DNA of 64,000 bases from Acidobacteriota bacterium. Lineage in GTDB: Bacteria; Acidobacteriota; Terriglobia; Bryobacterales; Bryobacteraceae. Under the pieces are notes generated by a model, which saw only the letters and a program-made list of their open reading frames with translations, was not told where the DNA came from and made no database searches. The stretch is from assembly GCA_025352795.1 (NCBI GenBank), contig JANXSF010000071.1, positions 1 through 64,000 of the forward strand. The letters are read 5' to 3'. Position numbers and translations under genes: made by a program. Below are positions 40,570 through 49,730 of the stretch, piece after piece. Within the stretch, counting starts at the first letter, position 1. Each line of letters begins with the position of its first letter.

Positions 40570-40617
40570 GCAGATAAAACTTAGCCATGCTGCAACAGAT
40601 CAGTGAGGTTTGACATT

Positions 40618-43119
40618 TTGAAGAACACGACGCGACGAAAGTTTCTACAGTTGGTCCAAGCCGGGGCAGCCATATCCACCCTGCCCACGACTCACGCTGC
40701 TCTTGCTGATCCAGGCCCTCTAACGCTTTGGTACAAACAACCTGCTGTTAAATGGGAAGAAGCGTTGGCAATCGGAAACGGTCGCCTGGGCGCGATGATT
40801 TTTGGCGGTGTGGAAAAAGAACGGCTCCAGTTGAATGAGATCACTGTTTGGTCAGGCAAGCTGGAAAAATCAGCAGACCGTAAGAAATCGTACAAGCAGG
40901 TTTCTGAAATCAGAAAGATGATTGAAGAGGGCAAGTACGTGGATGCTGGAAAAGCTATGTCCACCCACATGACCTGTGAAAAAGGCGGCAGGTTCGGCCG
41001 CGATAGCTACGGTTCTTATCAAACGCTAGGTGATCTCAATCTGGAATTCGCATCGATAGCAGGTGAAGTTACTAACTACCGTCGCTGGCTGGATATCAAC
41101 CAGGCGACGGCAGGCGTCACGTTTGAAGCGGGTGGCAAGGTTTGGACGCGCGAACTCATCTCTTCGGCTGTTGATCAGGTAATCGCCGTTCGCATCGCTT
41201 GCAGCGCCAAAGGATCAGTGACGTTCAACGCCAACTTATCTCGTATCAAATGGGCAGAGACCAAGCAGACTGGTCCGAACCAGTTGACCATGACCGGGAC
41301 AAGCCTTGGCCAAACCGATGACTTGCAGTTCGAAGCGCAATTACGAGTGGTTACGCAGGGTGGAACCCTTTCCATTGTGGATGGGCGCATCAATGTTAAA
41401 GATGCTGACGAAGCCACACTTTTCATCGCCGCAGGCACTGACTACATTTTGGACTTTGCCAAGGAATACAAGGGCGCCGATCCTCACGCAGCAGTTTCCG
41501 CAACCATGGAAAAAGCAGTGAAGCGATCCTTTGCCAAAATCATGTCTGACCACGTCAAAGATCATCAACGCTACTTTCAGCGCGTTGCAATCGATTTAGG
41601 ACAATCGTCCAACGCATTGTTGCCAACGGATGAACGCCTACGGAAATTCAGCGCTGGTGAAGACGACCCAATGCTGATCTCGCTCTTCTGCCAGTTCGGT
41701 CGCTACCTGCTGATTTCTTCCAGCCGTCCAGAGAATTTACTGCCATCCAATTCACAAGGAATCTGGGGAGATGGACTCTCTTTGCCGTGGGGTGCCGATT
41801 ACAAATCGAACATCAATTTCCAGATGAATTACTGGCCGGTGGAGACTGCAAATTTAAGTGAATGCCACACGCCAATGTTGCGCCTGATTCAAGCCAATGT
41901 TGAACCAGGCAAACTTACGGCGAAGGCCTATTTTGATGCGCCTGGTTGGATGCAAGCCTATACAACCAATCCTTGGGGTTGGACTGCGCCAGGCCCTGGT
42001 GTGCCTTGGGGGCCATTCTTTTTAGGCGGGGCTTGGACGGCCCAGCACCTATGGGAACACTATTCGTTCAATCGTGATCGCAACTACCTGCGAGCTGTTT
42101 ACCCGGTCATGAAGGGTGCCGCAGAAGCTTGTTTGCACGTACTGATTCCCGATGAAAATGGCCAACTGATTACTTCGCCATCCACTTCACCAGAAAATCG
42201 TTTCAAGACTGATGACGGCCAAAACTCCTTTGTGTGTGCCGGCACAGCTACTGAGCGCCAGATCGCCTGGGAGTTGTTCAACAACACCATCATGGCCAGT
42301 TGGACGCTGAAAATGGATGACGACTTCCGCAAGAAGATAGAGGAAGCAAAAGCGAAAATCCGTCCGCCGGAAATTGGTCGGGGTGGGCAGTTGATGGAGT
42401 GGGGAAAGGATTGGGACCTAAACTCTGCTGAACCAAAGCATCGTCATATCTCGCACTTATTTGCATTGCACCCCGGACGCCAGATTTCACCACATCGAAC
42501 CCCTCAACTTGCTGAAGCCGTGAAGGTCACACTCAACACACGTGGCGATCAAAGTACCGGATGGAGCCAGGCTTGGAAAATCAATTGTTGGGCTCGGCTA
42601 CATGACGGGGATCATGCGCTGAAGCTAATCCGCGAACAATTAAAGGCTGTGGAAACGACTACTACGAATTACGCACGCGGCGGCGGAACGTATTTCAACC
42701 TGTTCGACGCGCACCCGCCGTTCCAGATTGATGGCAACTTTGGAGCCGTATCTGGCATTAATGAAATGCTTCTGCAAAGCCATCTGATTGCTGAAGACCC
42801 TTCCAGTCAATTGGAGGAATCGTACATCCTCCACTTTCTTCCTGCGCTTCCATCCTCTTGGTTGAAAGGTGGAATCAAAGGATTGCGCGCGCGAGGGGGA
42901 GTGGAAGTGGACTTGGCATGGAATGAAGGCAAGGCCACGTCTGTAAACTTGCGTCCCAGTGCTGATGGGCGCTGGTCACTGTTTGCGCCCAAGGGTCAAA
43001 AGGTAAATGGCGTCCAAGCGGGCAGCAAAATCATTCCCATGAAACAGAAGTCTGATGGGACGCTAGACGTGGAACTTAAAAAAGGTACGGCGTATAAACT
43101 GATGTTCGCATTGGTCTAA
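40618..43119 (+). CDS. GH95 alpha-L-fucosidase
   Basis: A glycoside hydrolase family 95 protein of about 833 residues with an N-terminal twin-arginine signal ([15 protein letters not shown]). Conserved GH95 segments are [39 protein letters not shown], the general-acid region STSPEN (E526) and QIDGNFG (D705). It would release terminal alpha-1,2-fucose (or alpha-L-galactose) by inversion. Start choice: TTG 40618, with GAGG at 40605-40608; GTG 40603 has no ribosome binding site. Fifth gene of the TonB receptor 3 cluster, upstream of a LacI regulator. Confidence 0.93.
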
Positions 43120-43137
43120 ATCGCGGATAATTTAATC

Positions 43138-44163
43138 ATGGCTGTGACGATGAAGGACATTGCGAACGATCTTGGCGTATCTGTTGTTACGGTATCGAAG
43201 GCAATGCGGAATCATAATGACATCAGCCTTAAAACACGCACACGAGTCCTGCAGCGCATCAAAGAACTGGATTACCGACCCAATTTAGCAGCTCGTTCGT
43301 TGGCAACAGGCAAAAGTTATCTGATGGGATTAGTTGTCCCTGATCTGGTATATCCGTTTTTCTCCTTGGTTGCCAAAGGGGCATCCAGAGTGTTGCGCAA
43401 AAAGGGGTACAGCCTGATCATCGCTTCATCGGAAGAAGACCCTGATCTGGAAATCCAGGAACTCAGCCAGATGATGGCCAGAAATCTTGACGTCTATATT
43501 GTTGCCTCCGCGCAGACTGGCCCGGAAAGTCTTCGCCGTTTCGTGGAACAAAAGAAATCGCTCATTCTGGTTGACCGAAGATTTTCATCCTTCCCAGCGC
43601 ACTACGTAGGAACCGATGACAAGGAAATTGGCAGGATGGCAACTGACCATCTGATTGAACGCGGTTGCCGACAGATCGCATGCATTGGCGGTCGTGATGT
43701 GAGCCCGGCAATGGATCGCTTGGAGGGTTACAAACATGCCCTCATTAGTCATGGGCTCCCGGTACTGGAACAGTTCATTGTGACTCGGGTCAATGGAGAC
43801 AATCACGGCGACGTTACCGGGTTCGAGGCTATGAATTCGCTGTTGCGGTTAAGCCCGCGTCCCGATGGCGTATTCTGCCTTAACGATCCAACAGCCATGG
43901 GCGCAATGAAAGCGATTGCCGAAAGTGGCCTGCGCATCCCACAAGATATTGCTGTGATTGGATGCGGCAATGTTCCTTATGCTTCGGAGCTGAGGGTTCC
44001 GCTGAGCAGTGTCGATCAGGATTGCGAAATGATCGGCGAGAATGCCGCAAAGCTTGCATTTAGTCTGGTTGAAGGAAAGCAGTCTATGGCATTTCCCAAA
44101 ACCATTCTAATGAAACCGAAGCTGATCCCCAGAAATTCAACGAACCGCATTTCGCAAGAGTAA
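43138..44163 (+). CDS. LacI-family transcriptional regulator
   Basis: A 341-residue regulator with an N-terminal HTH (MKDIANDLGVSVVTVSKAM, residues 4-22), the hinge LDYRPNLAARSLATGKSYL, and a periplasmic-binding-like effector domain (GLVVPDLVYPFFSLVAKGA; GVFCLNDPTAMGAMKAI). It probably binds a sugar and controls the preceding carbohydrate operon, whose genes lie directly upstream with an 18-base gap. I could not identify a convincing LacI operator at the TonB receptor 3 promoter. It converges with the SLT-like gene. Confidence 0.95.
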   Translation: MAVTMKDIANDLGVSVVTVSKAMRNHNDISLKTRTRVLQRIKELDYRPNLAARSLATGKSYLMGLVVPDLVYPFFSLVAKGASRVLRKKGYSLIIASSEEDPDLEIQELSQMMARNLDVYIVASAQTGPESLRRFVEQKKSLILVDRRFSSFPAHYVGTDDKEIGRMATDHLIERGCRQIACIGGRDVSPAMDRLEGYKHALISHGLPVLEQFIVTRVNGDNHGDVTGFEAMNSLLRLSPRPDGVFCLNDPTAMGAMKAIAESGLRIPQDIAVIGCGNVPYASELRVPLSSVDQDCEMIGENAAKLAFSLVEGKQSMAFPKTILMKPKLIPRNSTNRISQE

Positions 44164-44172
44164 ATTTAACCA

Positions 44173-44769
44173 TCACTTAGCCAAGCCGCAAAATGGAAGT
44201 TGGCGGGTGAATTTCGTAATGGCAGGAAGGCGGTCACTGCGTTGCCACAGCACTGGCCAAACGCGCGCTCCACCTTTGGATGGCTGTGCTCCAACGTTTG
44301 TGATCACGCCGTCATGCTTCACCCAGGTGGAAAGAATCCTTGCACCGCAGGCAAGATTTGCCTCCGCCTTTTCCAGATCCTCAGCCTTGTTGATGAAGGT
44401 GCAGCCATAGCGGGCTGCCTTTGCCGAACCGAATGAAATCTGCAGAAGCCCCCTGCTAATGATTGGATTTTCAAATTTGTCTCCCATCCGTTCAACATGT
44501 CGAATCGCCGGATTGAAGCCGCTTTCAGGACGGGCGATGGCTGACAACATACCCACCCAGAACTTACTCCGGTCACTGTGCCCAAGGGCTTGGTAATTCG
44601 GACAAAATCTGGCGATGTCCGTAGGGTTGGTTGACGGTAACCGAGCTTCAACAACAGCAGCCTCAGCCGCTTTGGTCCACACCCCTGCTGGGTTCTTCGT
44701 TGCCCAAGCGGCGTAGTCAGCACCTACGCAAGGTGCGGCCAATGCCAGCAATATGTTGATGAACCTCAA
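44173..44769 (-). CDS. Secreted SLT-like protein
   Basis: A 198-residue protein with a signal peptide (INILLALAAPCVGA) and the core of a lytic transglycosylase/lysozyme-like fold: the ESGFNP segment (RPESGFNPAIRHVE), ISRGLLQISFGSA and ACGARILSTWVKH. These match the SLT E-S and GLLQI motifs. The E in PESGFNP is the likely catalytic acid. It probably cleaves peptidoglycan, or is a related inactive protein. Start TTG 44769 has no strong ribosome binding site. Confidence 0.75.
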   Translation of the reverse strand: MRFINILLALAAPCVGADYAAWATKNPAGVWTKAAEAAVVEARLPSTNPTDIARFCPNYQALGHSDRSKFWVGMLSAIARPESGFNPAIRHVERMGDKFENPIISRGLLQISFGSAKAARYGCTFINKAEDLEKAEANLACGARILSTWVKHDGVITNVGAQPSKGGARVWPVLWQRSDRLPAITKFTRQLPFCGLAK

Positions 44770-44796
44770 ACCGTGATTCTACTTCAATTGTTTGAT

Positions 44797-45336
44797 TTAA
44801 AGTTTGGCATTGCTGCGCTTCAACACATAAAAAGGGTGCCCTTCAAATTTGCCTTTCCGCTGGAATCCGTTTTTCAGCAGCACACGTTGCGACGCGATAT
44901 TCTCTTCCGGAGTGTTCGCCGTTACCGCATACACCTTCGAGTCCTCAAAAACCCAATGGCACAAACCGGACAGGGCCTCCGTCATAAACCCGACGCGTTG
45001 GTAATTGTCATCTATCCAGTAGCCTGTAAACACATTTCCCAATTCATCGGCTGGCCCGTTCAGCCCCATGCCGCCAATCACACGGTTCTCCGCGCGCAGT
45101 ACAATTAACCAATTTGTGTACCAACGGTATTCGTCAGGATGCTCGTGACACATGGCATTGCAATGGCGTAGACCTTGCGGAAACTCTTCGCGAAATACTT
45201 CAGGAATTTGAAGTCCAGCAGTTTCTATTCCAAGCAAGATTGGCAATTGATCCCAGCCGTCCAATACAATCGTCATCAATTCTGGCGGCAATGGAATCAG
45301 CCTTAGCCTTGTTGTGTTGCGCTCAAACAAAGTCAC
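44797..45336 (-). CDS. GNAT family N-acetyltransferase
   Basis: A 179-residue RimJ/RimL-type acetyltransferase. It shows TRLRLIPLPPELM, VIGGMGLNGP, the acetyl-CoA motif region YWIDDNYQRVGFMTEALSGL (split: YWIDDNYQRVG, FMTEALSGL) and TPEENIASQRVLLKNGFQRK. The start is GTG 45336, overlapping the TGA of the upstream truncated cytochrome gene by three bases (GTGA), so they are translationally coupled. The substrate may be a protein alpha-amine or a small amine; unknown. Confidence 0.88.
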   Translation of the reverse strand: MTLFERNTTRLRLIPLPPELMTIVLDGWDQLPILLGIETAGLQIPEVFREEFPQGLRHCNAMCHEHPDEYRWYTNWLIVLRAENRVIGGMGLNGPADELGNVFTGYWIDDNYQRVGFMTEALSGLCHWVFEDSKVYAVTANTPEENIASQRVLLKNGFQRKGKFEGHPFYVLKRSNAKL

Positions 45337-46034
45337 TGAGTCACCCCAACTTTTTCGGGAACTTCTAAGGTGCGGGATAAGAAGTTGGGATGAACAAGAA
45401 TCGCCTCTAGCGCAATCCGAATGCCCACCTCGAAAGATTCTCCACGCAGCTTTGCCATGTCGACTAAATGCACCAGCCCCATCACTTCAGGCCCACTAGC
45501 TGGACGTCCAAAAGCACGACTGGCTAGTGGCGTCAGTATCTGCCTTGCACACGCACTGGTGTGTTGATTGAACGCATGGCCGCACAGAAAAATCTGTTTG
45601 TGCGACTTAGCGACTTGGTTCGCGGTCTTCCGGTGATCGTCTTTGATATCGAATTCATCGGCGGTCAATTGGATGGCAATACCCAGAAGATCGCGGACCG
45701 CATCAATATATTCAAGCCTGTTCAATGGGCGCGTCGCTACTCGTGCAAGTTCCGTTTCAATCCACTGCAAGACTGGTGCAATCTGCTCCCCTGACGGCAG
45801 TAAAGCTCCTTTGGGAGGCATCTGGCCAGAGTTAAGCTTACCCAAAACTTTCTCCCAAGTAGGTTTGGATTGCAGCTTTCCAGTAAGATCAAGAGCTCCC
45901 GCTTTGGCCTGCGGATTATGACAAACCGCACAGTAGGTTTCAATAAATTCAGAGACAACTGCATCCCCCGGCGCGCCCCCGCAGGGCAACAGGAAAAGCA
46001 CCGGGACGACGAGTTTTGGAAGACGAGCTGCCAT
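45333..46034 (-). pseudogene. Truncated planctomycete-type cytochrome/DUF1587-DUF1592 protein with internal deletion
   Basis: Starting at ATG 46034, a signal peptide leads into a cytochrome c domain (YCAVCHNPQAKAGALDL, with CAVCH, and SGQMPPKG). Then comes the DUF1587 head (RPLNRLEYIDAVRDLLGI). Relatives then run several hundred residues through DUF1595/DUF1592/DUF1588/DUF1585. Here TADEFDIKDDHRKTANQ jumps directly to a segment like DUF1595/DUF1592 (CARQILTPLASRAFGRPAS, GIRIALEAILVHPNFL), and the frame ends within a few residues. I infer an internal deletion plus 3' truncation. At 234 residues it may still make a small periplasmic heme protein. It overlaps the GNAT gene. Confidence 0.75.
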
Positions 46035-46072
46035 TGTTTCTATGCTACAACTCGTTAGCTTGCATTTGCGAC

Positions 46073-46101
46073 TTGACTTTCCAAACGATCGTTCGTAATA
46101 T
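46073..46101 (+). promoter_or_regulatory. Strong sigma-70-like promoter of the PadR gene
   Basis: TTGACT (46073-46078), 17 bases, TAATAT (46096-46101). The spacer contains the perfect palindrome AACGATCGTT (46084-46093), and CGACATGTCG (46111-46120) follows at the start of the gene. Transcription would begin near 46107-46109, at or next to the GTG start of padR. Confidence 0.65.
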
Positions 46102-46107
46102 GGCGTT

Positions 46108-46440
46108 GTGCGACATGTCGTGGAACCTAATATATCCGAATCGGCATTACTCATTCTTCTAAGCTTGGCACCTGAGCCTCGCCACGGCTATGCAATCTTA
46201 AAAGATGTTGAGAATCTAAGCCAAGGCAGAGTGAAGTTGAGCACGGGTACGCTGTATGGTGCCCTGCGACGGATGCTTGAAGATAAGTGGATTGAACGCT
46301 TTCACGAGCCCGATGCCACGCGCGGTCGGCAAGCGTATCGGCTATCCTCAAACGGCCATTGCGTGCTTGCTGCGGAAGTTTCACGCATGAAGCAGTTGAC
46401 GCGGGTGGCCGCCAAGCGCCTTATAGGTAAGGAAGCATAA
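46108..46440 (+). CDS. PadR-family transcriptional regulator
   Basis: A 110-residue PadR winged-helix regulator: LLILLSLAPEPRHGYAILKD, VKLSTGTLYGALRRMLEDKW and the wing DATRGRQAYRLSSNG. This is the acidobacterial PadR type usually followed by a membrane protein. The GTG at 46108 lies only seven bases after the -10 box, so the transcript may be leaderless; GTG 46120 is an in-frame alternative, also without a ribosome binding site. The stop overlaps the ATG of the next gene (TAATG). Likely autoregulates through the palindromes around its promoter. Confidence 0.9.
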   Translation: MRHVVEPNISESALLILLSLAPEPRHGYAILKDVENLSQGRVKLSTGTLYGALRRMLEDKWIERFHEPDATRGRQAYRLSSNGHCVLAAEVSRMKQLTRVAAKRLIGKEA

Positions 46441-47462
46441 TGCGCACTCTCTACTCAGTGTTATTGCGGCTATATCCAAAATCGCTGCAAGAGCAATATG
46501 CCATGGAAATGTTTGAGGTCCACTGCGACGCAGCCCTGCAAGCACGTTCCGCCGGAACTTGGCATTACGCGTTATTCTGCTTTCGAGAAGTGTTTGGATT
46601 GCTCTTCGATGTTACTAAGACTGCGCCTTTAGGGAGAACTTCAATGACTCGCTTTCGATGGATTGCTTTAGGTGGATCGGTAGGCCTAGCGATTGCTGCG
46701 TTCACCGTAAATTACACAGAAGCCTACCGCTCCACTGCAGTTCTACGAATAGGCCAACCTAGAATTTCCAACAGGTATGTTGCTGGCAACCCAATTGACC
46801 CTCAGGCGTTAGTACGACGAATGAAAGAAACGCTTTTCTCACGCGCATCTCTAGTTAACATTATTCAAACCTATGCCCTTTATCCGCGCGAAATTAAGCG
46901 AGTGCCAATAGAGGATGTCATTGAGACAATGCGGCAGGATCTTGAAATCAAAGTGGCCGGCGAAGATACGTTTCGAATTGGTTTCACCTATCGAGACAAT
47001 ATATTGGCTCAGAAAGTAGTTCGTGAACTTGTGGAGCGGATATTTTCTGAGTATGAGCAATCCCGGAAAAGTGAAGTCACAATGGCACGTGAGTTTCTGA
47101 GCTCCCGCGTCGAAGACACAGCCAGGGAATGGGCCGATGCTGAAGCAGCTATGAAAAAAGCACAAGCCTTGGGAGGCGGTGGCGGCAGGTTACAACTTGA
47201 CTTGGACCTGGCTAGAGATCATTATAAATTGGCCAGTGATAAGCTTTCCGAAGCGCGAACCGCTGCCGTGATGGAAGCGAGAAAGTTGGGACCAAACCTT
47301 GAAATGTTGGACTCTGCTTCGCTCCCTCTTTCGCCAACTTACAACTCTGGTATCGTTCTGCTGACTGGCTTTGGTGGTGGTGGTGTTCTGGGCTTTTTGG
47401 TGAGCCTGCTGCTCTCATTCCTACCCAATAAAACTGCCCATTCTTCAGAGCTGAATGCCTAG
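46440..47462 (+). CDS. Fusion of a PadR-partner N-terminus with a Wzz-like chain-length domain
   Basis: Residues 1-60 (LYSVLLRLYPKSLQEQYAMEM) match the short conserved N-terminus of membrane proteins that follow PadR genes in Acidobacteriota. Next come a transmembrane helix (73-90), a Wzz/chain-length-determinant-like periplasmic domain (YRSTAVLRIGQP), a coiled coil at about 190-285 (AREFLSSRVEDTAREWADAE), a Gly-rich patch, and a second transmembrane helix at about 304-328. The order TM-coiled coil-TM with both ends inside is the Wzz topology. It is 340 residues, with no kinase domain. It may set length of a surface polysaccharide under PadR control. The fusion is unusual. Confidence 0.75.
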   Translation: MRTLYSVLLRLYPKSLQEQYAMEMFEVHCDAALQARSAGTWHYALFCFREVFGLLFDVTKTAPLGRTSMTRFRWIALGGSVGLAIAAFTVNYTEAYRSTAVLRIGQPRISNRYVAGNPIDPQALVRRMKETLFSRASLVNIIQTYALYPREIKRVPIEDVIETMRQDLEIKVAGEDTFRIGFTYRDNILAQKVVRELVERIFSEYEQSRKSEVTMAREFLSSRVEDTAREWADAEAAMKKAQALGGGGGRLQLDLDLARDHYKLASDKLSEARTAAVMEARKLGPNLEMLDSASLPLSPTYNSGIVLLTGFGGGGVLGFLVSLLLSFLPNKTAHSSELNA

Positions 47463-47469
47463 TGACTAA

Positions 47470-48273
47470 CTACTTACCCAACCAAGCTTCGAATGCTTCC
47501 AGCATTGTCTTGCCGTTATAAACTCGATCCAGCGACTTTTCCTTGTCTTTGAACTCGAACTTCAATACCACTGGCCCTTGCACCATCCAAGGCTTGAATT
47601 CTTTTACGCGAATAGCAGCGCTGCGAGCGGCAATTTGAATAAGAATGCGCGCTTCCTCATGGGAGATGCTGAGCGCCGACGCCTTGCCCATGCCCCGCTT
47701 CACTGCCACCGTTTCCGCTTTGGGCTGTAGATCCAGAAGTTCATCGCAAGCCGCTTGGTCGCCTGAAAGCATGATCACTGGAATGTGGAAGTATCCCGCA
47801 ATAGCTGCTACTTGGCCTATTTCGCCGACAGCTTTCCCGTTCAATGAAATCCGCTCCACGTTGAAACTTTGGGAATGTGCCAACACTCCATTCTTGGCTC
47901 CAGCCATGGCGTGTTGACCAATAAAAAGAATGCCATCATACAAGCGATCCTGCATGTAATAGTTAGCAGGCGTAGGCTTACCCTGAAGCAGTTGCCCAAA
48001 GGGATGAAGGGTGTCAACCGAAAGACTGCGGCTGCCGTCATGACCATCCCACACCACAATTTGACCCGCACCTGCTTCAACCAATCCCTTAATAGCAGCG
48101 TTAGTTTCCGCAGTTAGTAACTGACGACTTTCATCGTAGCGTCGCTGACCTGGCAGCAGTTGTTCATCGGCATTGTTGACCCCACCCACGCCTTCCATAT
48201 CGGTGACAATCAGGAATTTAGGCTTCTGAGCAAAAGCCATTGTGCACACAAACACAAACAAAAGCGCCTTCAT
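47470..48273 (-). CDS. M55-family D-aminopeptidase (DppA-like)
   Basis: A 267-residue zinc peptidase of family M55 with a signal peptide (LLFVFVCTMAFA). Conserved segments are FLIVTDMEGVGGV, the histidine-rich WDGHDGSRS and VIMLSGDQAACDELLDL. M55 enzymes are self-compartmentalising D-aminopeptidases. ATG 48273 is used; its ATG overlaps the TAA of the fucosidase gene by one base, so the two are co-translated. A longer start at 48297 would run inside the fucosidase gene. Confidence 0.9.
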   Translation of the reverse strand: MKALLFVFVCTMAFAQKPKFLIVTDMEGVGGVNNADEQLLPGQRRYDESRQLLTAETNAAIKGLVEAGAGQIVVWDGHDGSRSLSVDTLHPFGQLLQGKPTPANYYMQDRLYDGILFIGQHAMAGAKNGVLAHSQSFNVERISLNGKAVGEIGQVAAIAGYFHIPVIMLSGDQAACDELLDLQPKAETVAVKRGMGKASALSISHEEARILIQIAARSAAIRVKEFKPWMVQGPVVLKFEFKDKEKSLDRVYNGKTMLEAFEAWLGK

Positions 48274-49730
48274 TATTGAATCACCTTCAGAACCCACAGC
48301 GGCTGTGTCCGCAACTCCTCGGGCAACTCTGGTAGTTCAATGTTCAAAGCCTTACCCACTGTCTTCCACTTCAAAGGTGACGATGCACCTAGCAAGGTTA
48401 CCGACTTGGCCTCAAAGCCTACATCCTTGATCTGAAACTGACGCCCCGGCCAGCGAGGCAGAATCGCATAAACATTTTTCCCCTTAGCCGTGAAAAATGC
48501 TTCAATTGCTGCCTTTTCCGCAGAAGGCTTTTGCCCCAGCTTAGTAACATCGTATGCTGTTTCATACGACTTGTTATATTCCACTTTTTGCACTTCCCCT
48601 GAACTCCACTGACGAGAGGTTTTCCAGGGTTTAGTGCCGTAAATTGCCTCGCCATTCACTTTCAGCCAGGACCCAATCTCCAGCAGACGTTCCTCCATCA
48701 CCACCGGAATTGTACCGTCGCCATTAGGCCCAATGTCCAACAGTAAGTTACCACCACGACTCACCAAATCCACCAACATAGTTACCAGTTGAGGGCCTGT
48801 ATGATAGTCCTCCACTCGTTCCGCGCGATTGTAGCCGTAGGAAAATCCCATGCCACGGCTTTCCTCCCACACATGATCCATGCCACTCATGCCGGGTGTG
48901 TACTCGGTGGTCCAGTAACCGCCATGCTTGTGTCGGCTATCCTTTCCCCAACGGTCGTTAATCACCACCTCGTTCTTCACGGCAGTTTCGTTGAACAGCC
49001 ACGCCAAAAGTTCCGGACTTTTCCATTCATCAGATGGAAGGTCCCATTCCCCGTCACTAAAAATAATGGACGGATTGTAGCGAGTTACCAGGTCTTTAAA
49101 CTGAGGCGTCATATGCTCGCGGATGTAGCGCTGCTTGTCTGCTAAATACATGGGGTTGTACCACTCATAGAGCGAATAGTAAAAACCCATCTTCAAATTC
49201 TTTTTGCGGACGGCTTCAGTAAGATCGCCCAAAATATCGCGGTTGGGGCCTGTGTCCATTGCGTTCCAAGGGCGACCCCATGTGGCTGAAGCTTCCTTGC
49301 TGGGCCACAACGCAAAGCCTTCATGATGTTTGGAAGTAAGCGCCACGTACTTTGCCCCGGACCTTGCAAATATGTCAGACCAGTGATCCGGGTCAAACAG
49401 TTGAGCACGGAATTGTGAAGCAAAGTTTTTGTATTCGTAATCGGCACCATACTGCTTTTTGTGATATTCCCAAGTGCCGCTCTGAATGGGATTCGCATTC
49501 GGCTGCTGCCCTGCAGTCATCGCGTTCCAATACCATTCCGCGTAAGCCAGCTTGCCAGGAATTACCGGAGCATAAGCGGGTACCGAATAAACTCCCCAAT
49601 GAATGAAGATTCCAAACTTAGCATCAGTAAACCATGTTGGCGTTGGACGGCTATCAATGGATTCCCAAGTAGGCTGATAAGTCTGTGCCTGCAATAAGCC
49701 GATGGTAACTAGCAATAAAAGTGTTTTCAT
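48273..49730 (-). CDS. GH29 alpha-L-fucosidase
   Basis: A 485-residue secreted fucosidase (signal peptide to about residue 15, ending LLQAQ). It shows the GH29 opening FGIFIHWGVYSVPAYAP, SKHHEGFALWPSK, and the nucleophile region NPSIIFSDGEWDLP, where the D of SDGEW is the likely nucleophile. GH29 enzymes retain configuration and remove alpha-1,3/1,4/1,6-fucose, complementing the GH95 enzyme at 40618-43119. A C-terminal beta-sandwich follows. It is coupled to the M55 peptidase gene. Confidence 0.95.
   Translation of the reverse strand: MKTLLLLVTIGLLQAQTYQPTWESIDSRPTPTWFTDAKFGIFIHWGVYSVPAYAPVIPGKLAYAEWYWNAMTAGQQPNANPIQSGTWEYHKKQYGADYEYKNFASQFRAQLFDPDHWSDIFARSGAKYVALTSKHHEGFALWPSKEASATWGRPWNAMDTGPNRDILGDLTEAVRKKNLKMGFYYSLYEWYNPMYLADKQRYIREHMTPQFKDLVTRYNPSIIFSDGEWDLPSDEWKSPELLAWLFNETAVKNEVVINDRWGKDSRHKHGGYWTTEYTPGMSGMDHVWEESRGMGFSYGYNRAERVEDYHTGPQLVTMLVDLVSRGGNLLLDIGPNGDGTIPVVMEERLLEIGSWLKVNGEAIYGTKPWKTSRQWSSGEVQKVEYNKSYETAYDVTKLGQKPSAEKAAIEAFFTAKGKNVYAILPRWPGRQFQIKDVGFEAKSVTLLGASSPLKWKTVGKALNIELPELPEELRTQPLWVLKVIQ

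What the first reader, a model, noticed from the sequence alone, without database searches (positions are those of the whole stretch)
46440..47462. PadR-linked protein that fuses a PadR-partner N-terminus to a Wzz-like chain-length domain
The N-terminal 60 residues match proteins that usually follow acidobacterial PadR genes and continue into large permease domains. Here they lead directly into TM helix 1, a coiled coil and TM helix 2, the topology of Wzz polysaccharide chain-length regulators. PadR control of a surface-polysaccharide length factor would be a new arrangement. The fusion is read from the frame; the function is inference.
Basis: partly seen in the sequence, partly recalled or inferred. 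Interest (0 to 1): 0.6.

Follow-up and report, generated by a model that had tools for sequence, protein, structure and literature searches.

The report
PadR-linked membrane protein with Wzz domain
A soil-bacterium gene pair joins a small DNA-binding repressor to a membrane protein built like a polysaccharide chain-length regulator, and the pair recurs with its own conserved DNA switch, so sugar-coat assembly may be wired straight to gene control.

Summary
ORF 46440-47462 (340 aa) overlaps an upstream PadR gene by one base. Its first ~62 residues match the prefix of PadR-linked acidobacterial ADOP permeases (hhalign 97.9%, E 5e-13). Residues 68-327 model as a polysaccharide co-polymerase (Wzz/PCP): the 50 Foldseek rows listed are all PCP chains; TIGR03007 matches at 8e-18, below its cut-off. 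Against full-size PCPs it lacks ~200 residues of coiled coil.
The architecture is not unique. In 56 loci plus the window, PadR lies directly upstream in 22 of 22 proteins with the prefix but no Wzz, 19 of 24 prefix+Wzz, and 0 of 16 Wzz-only proteins. The query's PadR start lies inside a conserved promoter/operator: 24 sites in 23 of 200 family genomes, 22 of them such PadR starts. A related PadR group has another operator (38 places, 33 of 200 genomes, 35 at PadR starts); twice it sits directly before a PadR-less prefix+Wzz gene.
Best reading: a HAAS-PadR-like membrane switch whose outer part is a PCP domain. That this protein sets chain length is untested; none of ten neighbouring genes scanned is an export, PCP or tyrosine-kinase gene. 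New variant of a known kind.

The parts
46073..46078 (+). -35-like hexamer TTGACT of the padR promoter
   Evidence: read directly; TTGAC at about this distance at 18 of 22 query-type PadR starts
46096..46101 (+). -10-like hexamer TAATAT, 17 bp after the -35; PadR start codon only 6 nt further, so the mRNA is probably leaderless
   Evidence: leaderless start is inference
46100..46120 (+). putative PadR operator ATGGCGTTGTGCGACATGTCG; 46111-46120 CGACATGTCG is a perfect palindrome and codes residues 2-4 of PadR
   Evidence: 25-bp pattern 46096-46120: once in own genome at <=3 mismatches; 24 sites in 200 family genomes, 22 at PadR starts, control 1
46108..46440 (+). PadR-type repressor, 110 aa, GTG start
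   Evidence: PF03551 E 3e-15; TIGR03433 64.5 bits, below its cut-off 101.8
46440..47462 (+). 340-aa PadR-partner/Wzz fusion protein; start overlaps padR stop (TAATG)
46440..46625 (+). PadR-partner prefix, residues 1-62, three helices, predicted cytoplasmic
   Evidence: hhalign to ADOP/other prefixes 97.9% over 40 columns; AF2 helices 2-9 (2-10 alone), 14-38, 40-61, modest confidence
46641..46715 (+). TM helix 1, residues 68-92
   Evidence: AF2; best hydropathy 1.56 at residue 72, weak
46716..47345 (+). extracytoplasmic Wzz/PCP domain, residues 93-302: alpha/beta base plus short helical hairpin
   Evidence: TIGR03007 69-240 E 7.7e-18; Foldseek PCP hits
47322..47336 (+). Pro-rich LPLSP before TM2 (residues 295-299)
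   Evidence: L295, P296, P299 invariant in the 9 aligned rows
47346..47420 (+). TM helix 2, residues 303-327, Gly-rich
   Evidence: AF2; hydropathy 1.99 at 305

Best explanation
The pair is a small self-regulated membrane-to-DNA switch. PadR represses its own leaderless promoter through the palindrome over its start codon. The translationally coupled partner sits in the inner membrane: its cytoplasmic prefix docks PadR, and its Wzz/PCP domain outside reports on polysaccharide or lipid-linked sugar assembly (ligand binding, or joining a PCP ring). A change outside alters the prefix, which releases or re-loads PadR. Shown here: gene order and overlap, conserved operator-like element, the prefix's tie to PadR, PCP fold (by model). 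Inferred: repression, coupling, prefix-PadR contact, what is sensed, direction of the signal.
For: The prefix predicts PadR: 41 of 46 prefix proteins against 0 of 16 Wzz-only proteins have PadR directly upstream (Fisher 7e-11, rows not independent). The prefix carries unrelated domains (ADOP, EF-hand, multi-TM, Wzz), as expected of a docking module. Two PadR groups that fall together (100/99*; 91/96 and 97/94* on their own) each have their own operator at the PadR start. Sites away from padR exist: before prefix+Wzz genes without padR (L040, L085), before TIGR03435 genes in two genomes and before an ADOP gene. A HAAS-PadR dyad with this logic, including an FtsX/MacB fusion, is proposed in PMC11237479 (passages read).
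Against: No contact between prefix and PadR was tested. The prefix hits no HAAS model and shows no GxP motif. In the query's genome the 25-bp site occurs once, and the five weaker 3-mismatch hits of a 21-bp core (one in the control) all lie in longer opposite-strand frames, so no remote target is known for this PadR. Some prefix proteins have no TM by hydropathy (L053, L064), so the signal need not be extracytoplasmic. The ADOP-type prefix profile matches short-form prefixes only weakly (0.01 to 3e-7, none for L088).
Confidence: 0.5

Rival explanations
1. The Wzz part is the output: a PadR-controlled short co-polymerase that changes exopolysaccharide length, alone or by mixing into the housekeeping PCP ring; the prefix only gives feedback on PadR.
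For: PCP fold, P..P/G-rich TM2 signature kept; closest full-size kin lie in export-PCP-kinase clusters (confirmed by model for L074 and for C44 of the own genome); opvAB of Salmonella, with a 221-aa two-TM Wzz-like protein, is involved in O-antigen length (PMC3350482, abstract and passages); two of three Listeria PadRs mainly regulate their own operon (PMC6624303, passages).
Against: No export, PCP or tyrosine-kinase gene among ten neighbours scanned; the prefix-Wzz order is one of a series of prefix fusions to non-polysaccharide domains; in most of the ten short-form relatives aligned the hairpin is nearly gone.
Confidence: 0.3
2. Plain homeostasis: the prefix titrates PadR so the amount of the membrane protein sets its own transcription; no external signal is read.
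For: Own-genome 25-bp site unique at <=3 mismatches; weaker core hits lie in coding frames; the site overlaps the padR promoter.
Against: Remote sites before TIGR03435 and ADOP genes in relatives suggest outputs beyond the operon, at least there.
Confidence: 0.15
3. A decayed fusion: remnant of a PCP gene captured by a PadR prefix, without function.
For: Coiled coil lost; variable lengths and tandem copies among relatives.
Against: No stop; 40% identity over residues 4-331 to G001; operator kept in 17 of 76 genera searched.
Confidence: 0.04

Closest known systems
HAAS-PadR dyad (Ravi et al. 2024, PMC11237479)
   Same: stand-alone PadR next to a protein with an N-terminal helical domain fused to membrane domains, including FtsX/MacB permeases
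   Different: no HAAS model match, no GxP motif; Wzz/PCP is not among the fusions named in the passages read
TIGR03007 XrtA-type PCP with TIGR03027 export and TIGR03018 kinase genes
   Same: same alpha/beta base, TMs, Pro/Gly signature; closest full-size kin
   Different: query has a PadR prefix, lacks about 200 residues of coiled coil, and no kinase/export neighbour was seen
ADOP (TIGR03434) with padR_acidobact (TIGR03433)
   Same: same prefix, same gene order
   Different: permease instead of Wzz; query PadR below the TIGR03433 cut-off
OpvB / STM2208 (Salmonella)
   Same: short two-TM Wzz-like inner-membrane protein in a small regulated operon
   Different: phase variation rather than PadR; no such prefix reported in the passages read

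Membership tests
Wzz / polysaccharide co-polymerase | two TMs flanking an alpha/beta base with helical hairpin | tested here: met
   AF2 and Foldseek
Wzz / polysaccharide co-polymerase | curated model above cut-off (PF02706, TIGR03007) | tested here: not met
   query: no PF02706 hit, TIGR03007 64 bits of 278.85; relatives L039 and L037 pass PF02706
Wzz / polysaccharide co-polymerase | Pro-rich motif before Gly-rich TM2 (motif recalled) | tested here: met
   P296, P299, G310, G318 invariant in A5
Wzz / polysaccharide co-polymerase | sets polymer length | not testable with these tools
   needs bench work
HAAS-PadR dyad | adjacent stand-alone PadR | tested here: met
HAAS-PadR dyad | three-helix N-terminal domain | tested here: met
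   AF2 helices 2-9, 14-38, 40-61; prefix alone pLDDT 69 from 3 sequences
HAAS-PadR dyad | HAAS sequence model | tested here: not met
   Pfam scans of 10 and 14 prefix sequences: no HAAS family
HAAS-PadR dyad | GxP kink in helix 3 | tested here: not met
   no G-x-P in residues 1-66 (sequence)
HAAS-PadR dyad | same fold as solved HAAS (2O3L) | tested here: inconclusive
   low-confidence model, no useful PDB hit
padR_acidobact TIGR03433 | score above curated cut-off | tested here: not met
   64.5 of 101.8 bits
PadR PF03551 | score above gathering cut-off | tested here: met
   56.4 bits, cut-off 27

The most novel reading that the evidence does not exclude
A truncated co-polymerase subunit acts as a spy in the exopolysaccharide machine: it joins the ring of the housekeeping PCP, reads its occupancy or chain state, and passes this through its prefix to a docked PadR, a one-protein link from polysaccharide assembly to transcription that arose more than once.
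Probability: 0.2. Interest if true: 0.8.

Novelty: new variant of a known kind. Interest (0 to 1): 0.55.

Why it matters
How cells sense the state of their polysaccharide export machines is largely open (general knowledge). Here a co-polymerase domain is covalently tied to a module that goes with a repressor, with a visible operator-like element, so the link can be tested by reporter. The operators also give a handle on possible outputs (TIGR03435, ADOP genes) of an acidobacterial regulator group on which I found no experimental paper.

Tried and rejected
Unique-fusion reading: rejected, many relatives. HAAS membership by sequence: rejected. Single versus repeated fusion: unresolved. In the PadR tree the query type (3 rows, 90/96) sits among prefix proteins without Wzz, which favours a separate Wzz gain. 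The Wzz tree does not settle it: with L036 set aside, 18 prefix+Wzz rows lie on one side of a branch at support 90; with L036 included one clade is weakly rejected (AU p 0.037) (38 of 65 rows kept). The 65-row tree was a quick tree, its careful search unfinished. Remote targets in the own genome: a 21-bp core at <=3 mismatches gave five other hits and one in the control; all five lie within longer opposite-strand frames, so I dropped them. Fold of the prefix alone: no useful match. Papers: 'PadR' with 'Wzz' gave 3 papers; of one (PMC12419801) I read passages, where the two stand in different sections, the other two I saw only as listings; 'PadR' with 'chain length determinant' gave none. Of I saw titles and starts of abstracts; none describes this pair there. 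ACO32024.1, the acidobacterial HAAS example of PMC11237479, could not be fetched, so whether its HAAS is this prefix stays open.

Full report
What is there. PadR (46108-46440) and a 340-aa protein (46440-47462) share the bases TAATG.

C-terminal part. NCBIfam TIGR03007 matches residues 69-240 at 7.7e-18, far below its cut-off. Pfam gives nothing for the query; of ten relatives, L039 and L037 pass PF02706 and most others match PF02706 or PF13807 below cut-off, while the two L043 proteins match neither. The AlphaFold2 model is a PCP and the 50 Foldseek rows listed are all PCP chains. Aligned with full-size PCPs the query lacks the central coiled coil and the extra C-terminal part, but keeps the base and the LP..P/Gly-rich TM2 stretch. 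L074 lies between export (TIGR03027-like) and tyrosine kinase (TIGR03018-like) genes; the own genome has such a trio on C44. Pfam scans of ten neighbouring genes (39.6-54.7 kb) show ThuA, GH95, LacI, SLT, GNAT, a DUF1595 protein, peptidase M55, alpha-L-fucosidase, a P-type ATPase and phosphoketolase; the rest of the window was only listed as ORFs.

N-terminal part. A three-row profile of the prefix found 28 matches in 19 of 61 genomes, 12 of them in frames of 841-1005 aa. I fetched 20 of these places: 7 are ADOP-like by length and TM pattern; one, L054, was confirmed by TIGR03434, whose model begins at residue 54. EF-hands were confirmed for L065 and L063 and are visible in L070. Profile-profile comparison of the query-type prefix with ten such prefixes: 97.9%, E 5.3e-13 over 40 columns. 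The ADOP-type profile matches short-form prefixes more weakly.

Tie to PadR. I gave a 15-kb piece of the window and 56 of the 100 loci then in hand (L035-L071, L081-L098, L100). PadR on the same strand within -60 to 400 nt: prefix only 22 of 22; prefix+Wzz 19 of 24; Wzz only 0 of 16, one of which (L050) is cut upstream. The five misses are two downstream members of a tandem of three (L035), the second frame of a tandem (L037), and L040 and L085.

Operators. Upstream regions of 26 genes showed two conserved layouts. Short-form PadRs: a 34-bp semi-palindrome, 39 rows at 38 places in 33 of 200 family genomes at <=3 mismatches, control 0. 35 of 38 are PadR starts (one, G319:C220, judged from the first codons at a contig end); two (G200:C4, G059:C360) precede a prefix+Wzz gene with no padR; one (G327:C78) precedes a TIGR03435 gene. 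In G081, of another family, one site is at padR and one before a TIGR03435 gene. Both TIGR03435 genes were confirmed by model, E 1e-45 and 2.6e-58. These genomes hold 54 and 37 TIGR03435 matches, so hitting that family twice by chance is about 4e-5 at one gene per kb (a sum made after the fact). Query-type PadRs: the 25-bp pattern has 5 sites in 61 genomes at <=2 mismatches, control 0, and 24 sites in 23 of 200 genomes at <=3, control 1. 22 are PadR starts followed by a prefix protein, three of these with Wzz (G000, G001, G328); one (L171) precedes an ADOP gene, cut by the end of the locus (TIGR03434 E 3e-130, below its cut-off); one (L162) lies inside another frame. G058 has the same pair with a more divergent site. 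In the own genome five weaker hits of a shorter core lie in coding frames.

History. See Tried and rejected; repeated acquisition of Wzz by PadR-prefix systems is likely but not proven. Relatives also carry two Wzz units in one protein or three prefix+Wzz genes in a row.

Mechanism. The layout agrees with autoregulation and with the HAAS-PadR proposal (PMC11237479, passages), in which an N-terminal domain of a membrane protein passes a signal to PadR. That the Wzz domain senses rather than sets polymer length is my inference; the rival is kept at 0.3, and the opvAB work (PMC3350482, abstract and passages) shows that an operon with a short Wzz-like protein can affect chain length.

Noticed in passing
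L106 (G081:C27:67570), L125/L149 (G327:C78:189393): Short-form PadR operator directly before TIGR03435 genes with no padR in the stretches fetched: candidate remote targets.
   Followed up: partly
L171 (G245:C16): Query-type operator (3 mismatches) before an ADOP permease gene that lacks the PadR prefix.
   Followed up: partly
window 45333-46154 (-): 273-aa protein with cytochrome, a stub of PSD3 and PSD5/DUF1595 matches: looks like an internally shortened planctomycete-type cytochrome protein.
   Followed up: no
L109, L110, L113, L157, L158, L163, L166-L170: Query-type PadR partners that are short, 7 of 11 without TM by hydropathy, with a tail like M..AI..HDF..AR.YS.E (UVR-like look, recalled; no Pfam hit for L052).
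   Followed up: no
L063, L065, L070: PadR partners with the prefix, one TM and EF-hands: possible calcium-reading version.
   Followed up: partly
window 40603-49730: GH95 and alpha-L-fucosidase genes with a LacI regulator flank the pair: perhaps a fucose-related locus.
   Followed up: no
L079, L080: MAG records titled Acidimicrobiia and Klebsiella pneumoniae carry PCP homologues; L079 has the contig length of G031:C42, a family-f1 genome, so its title looks wrong.
   Followed up: no
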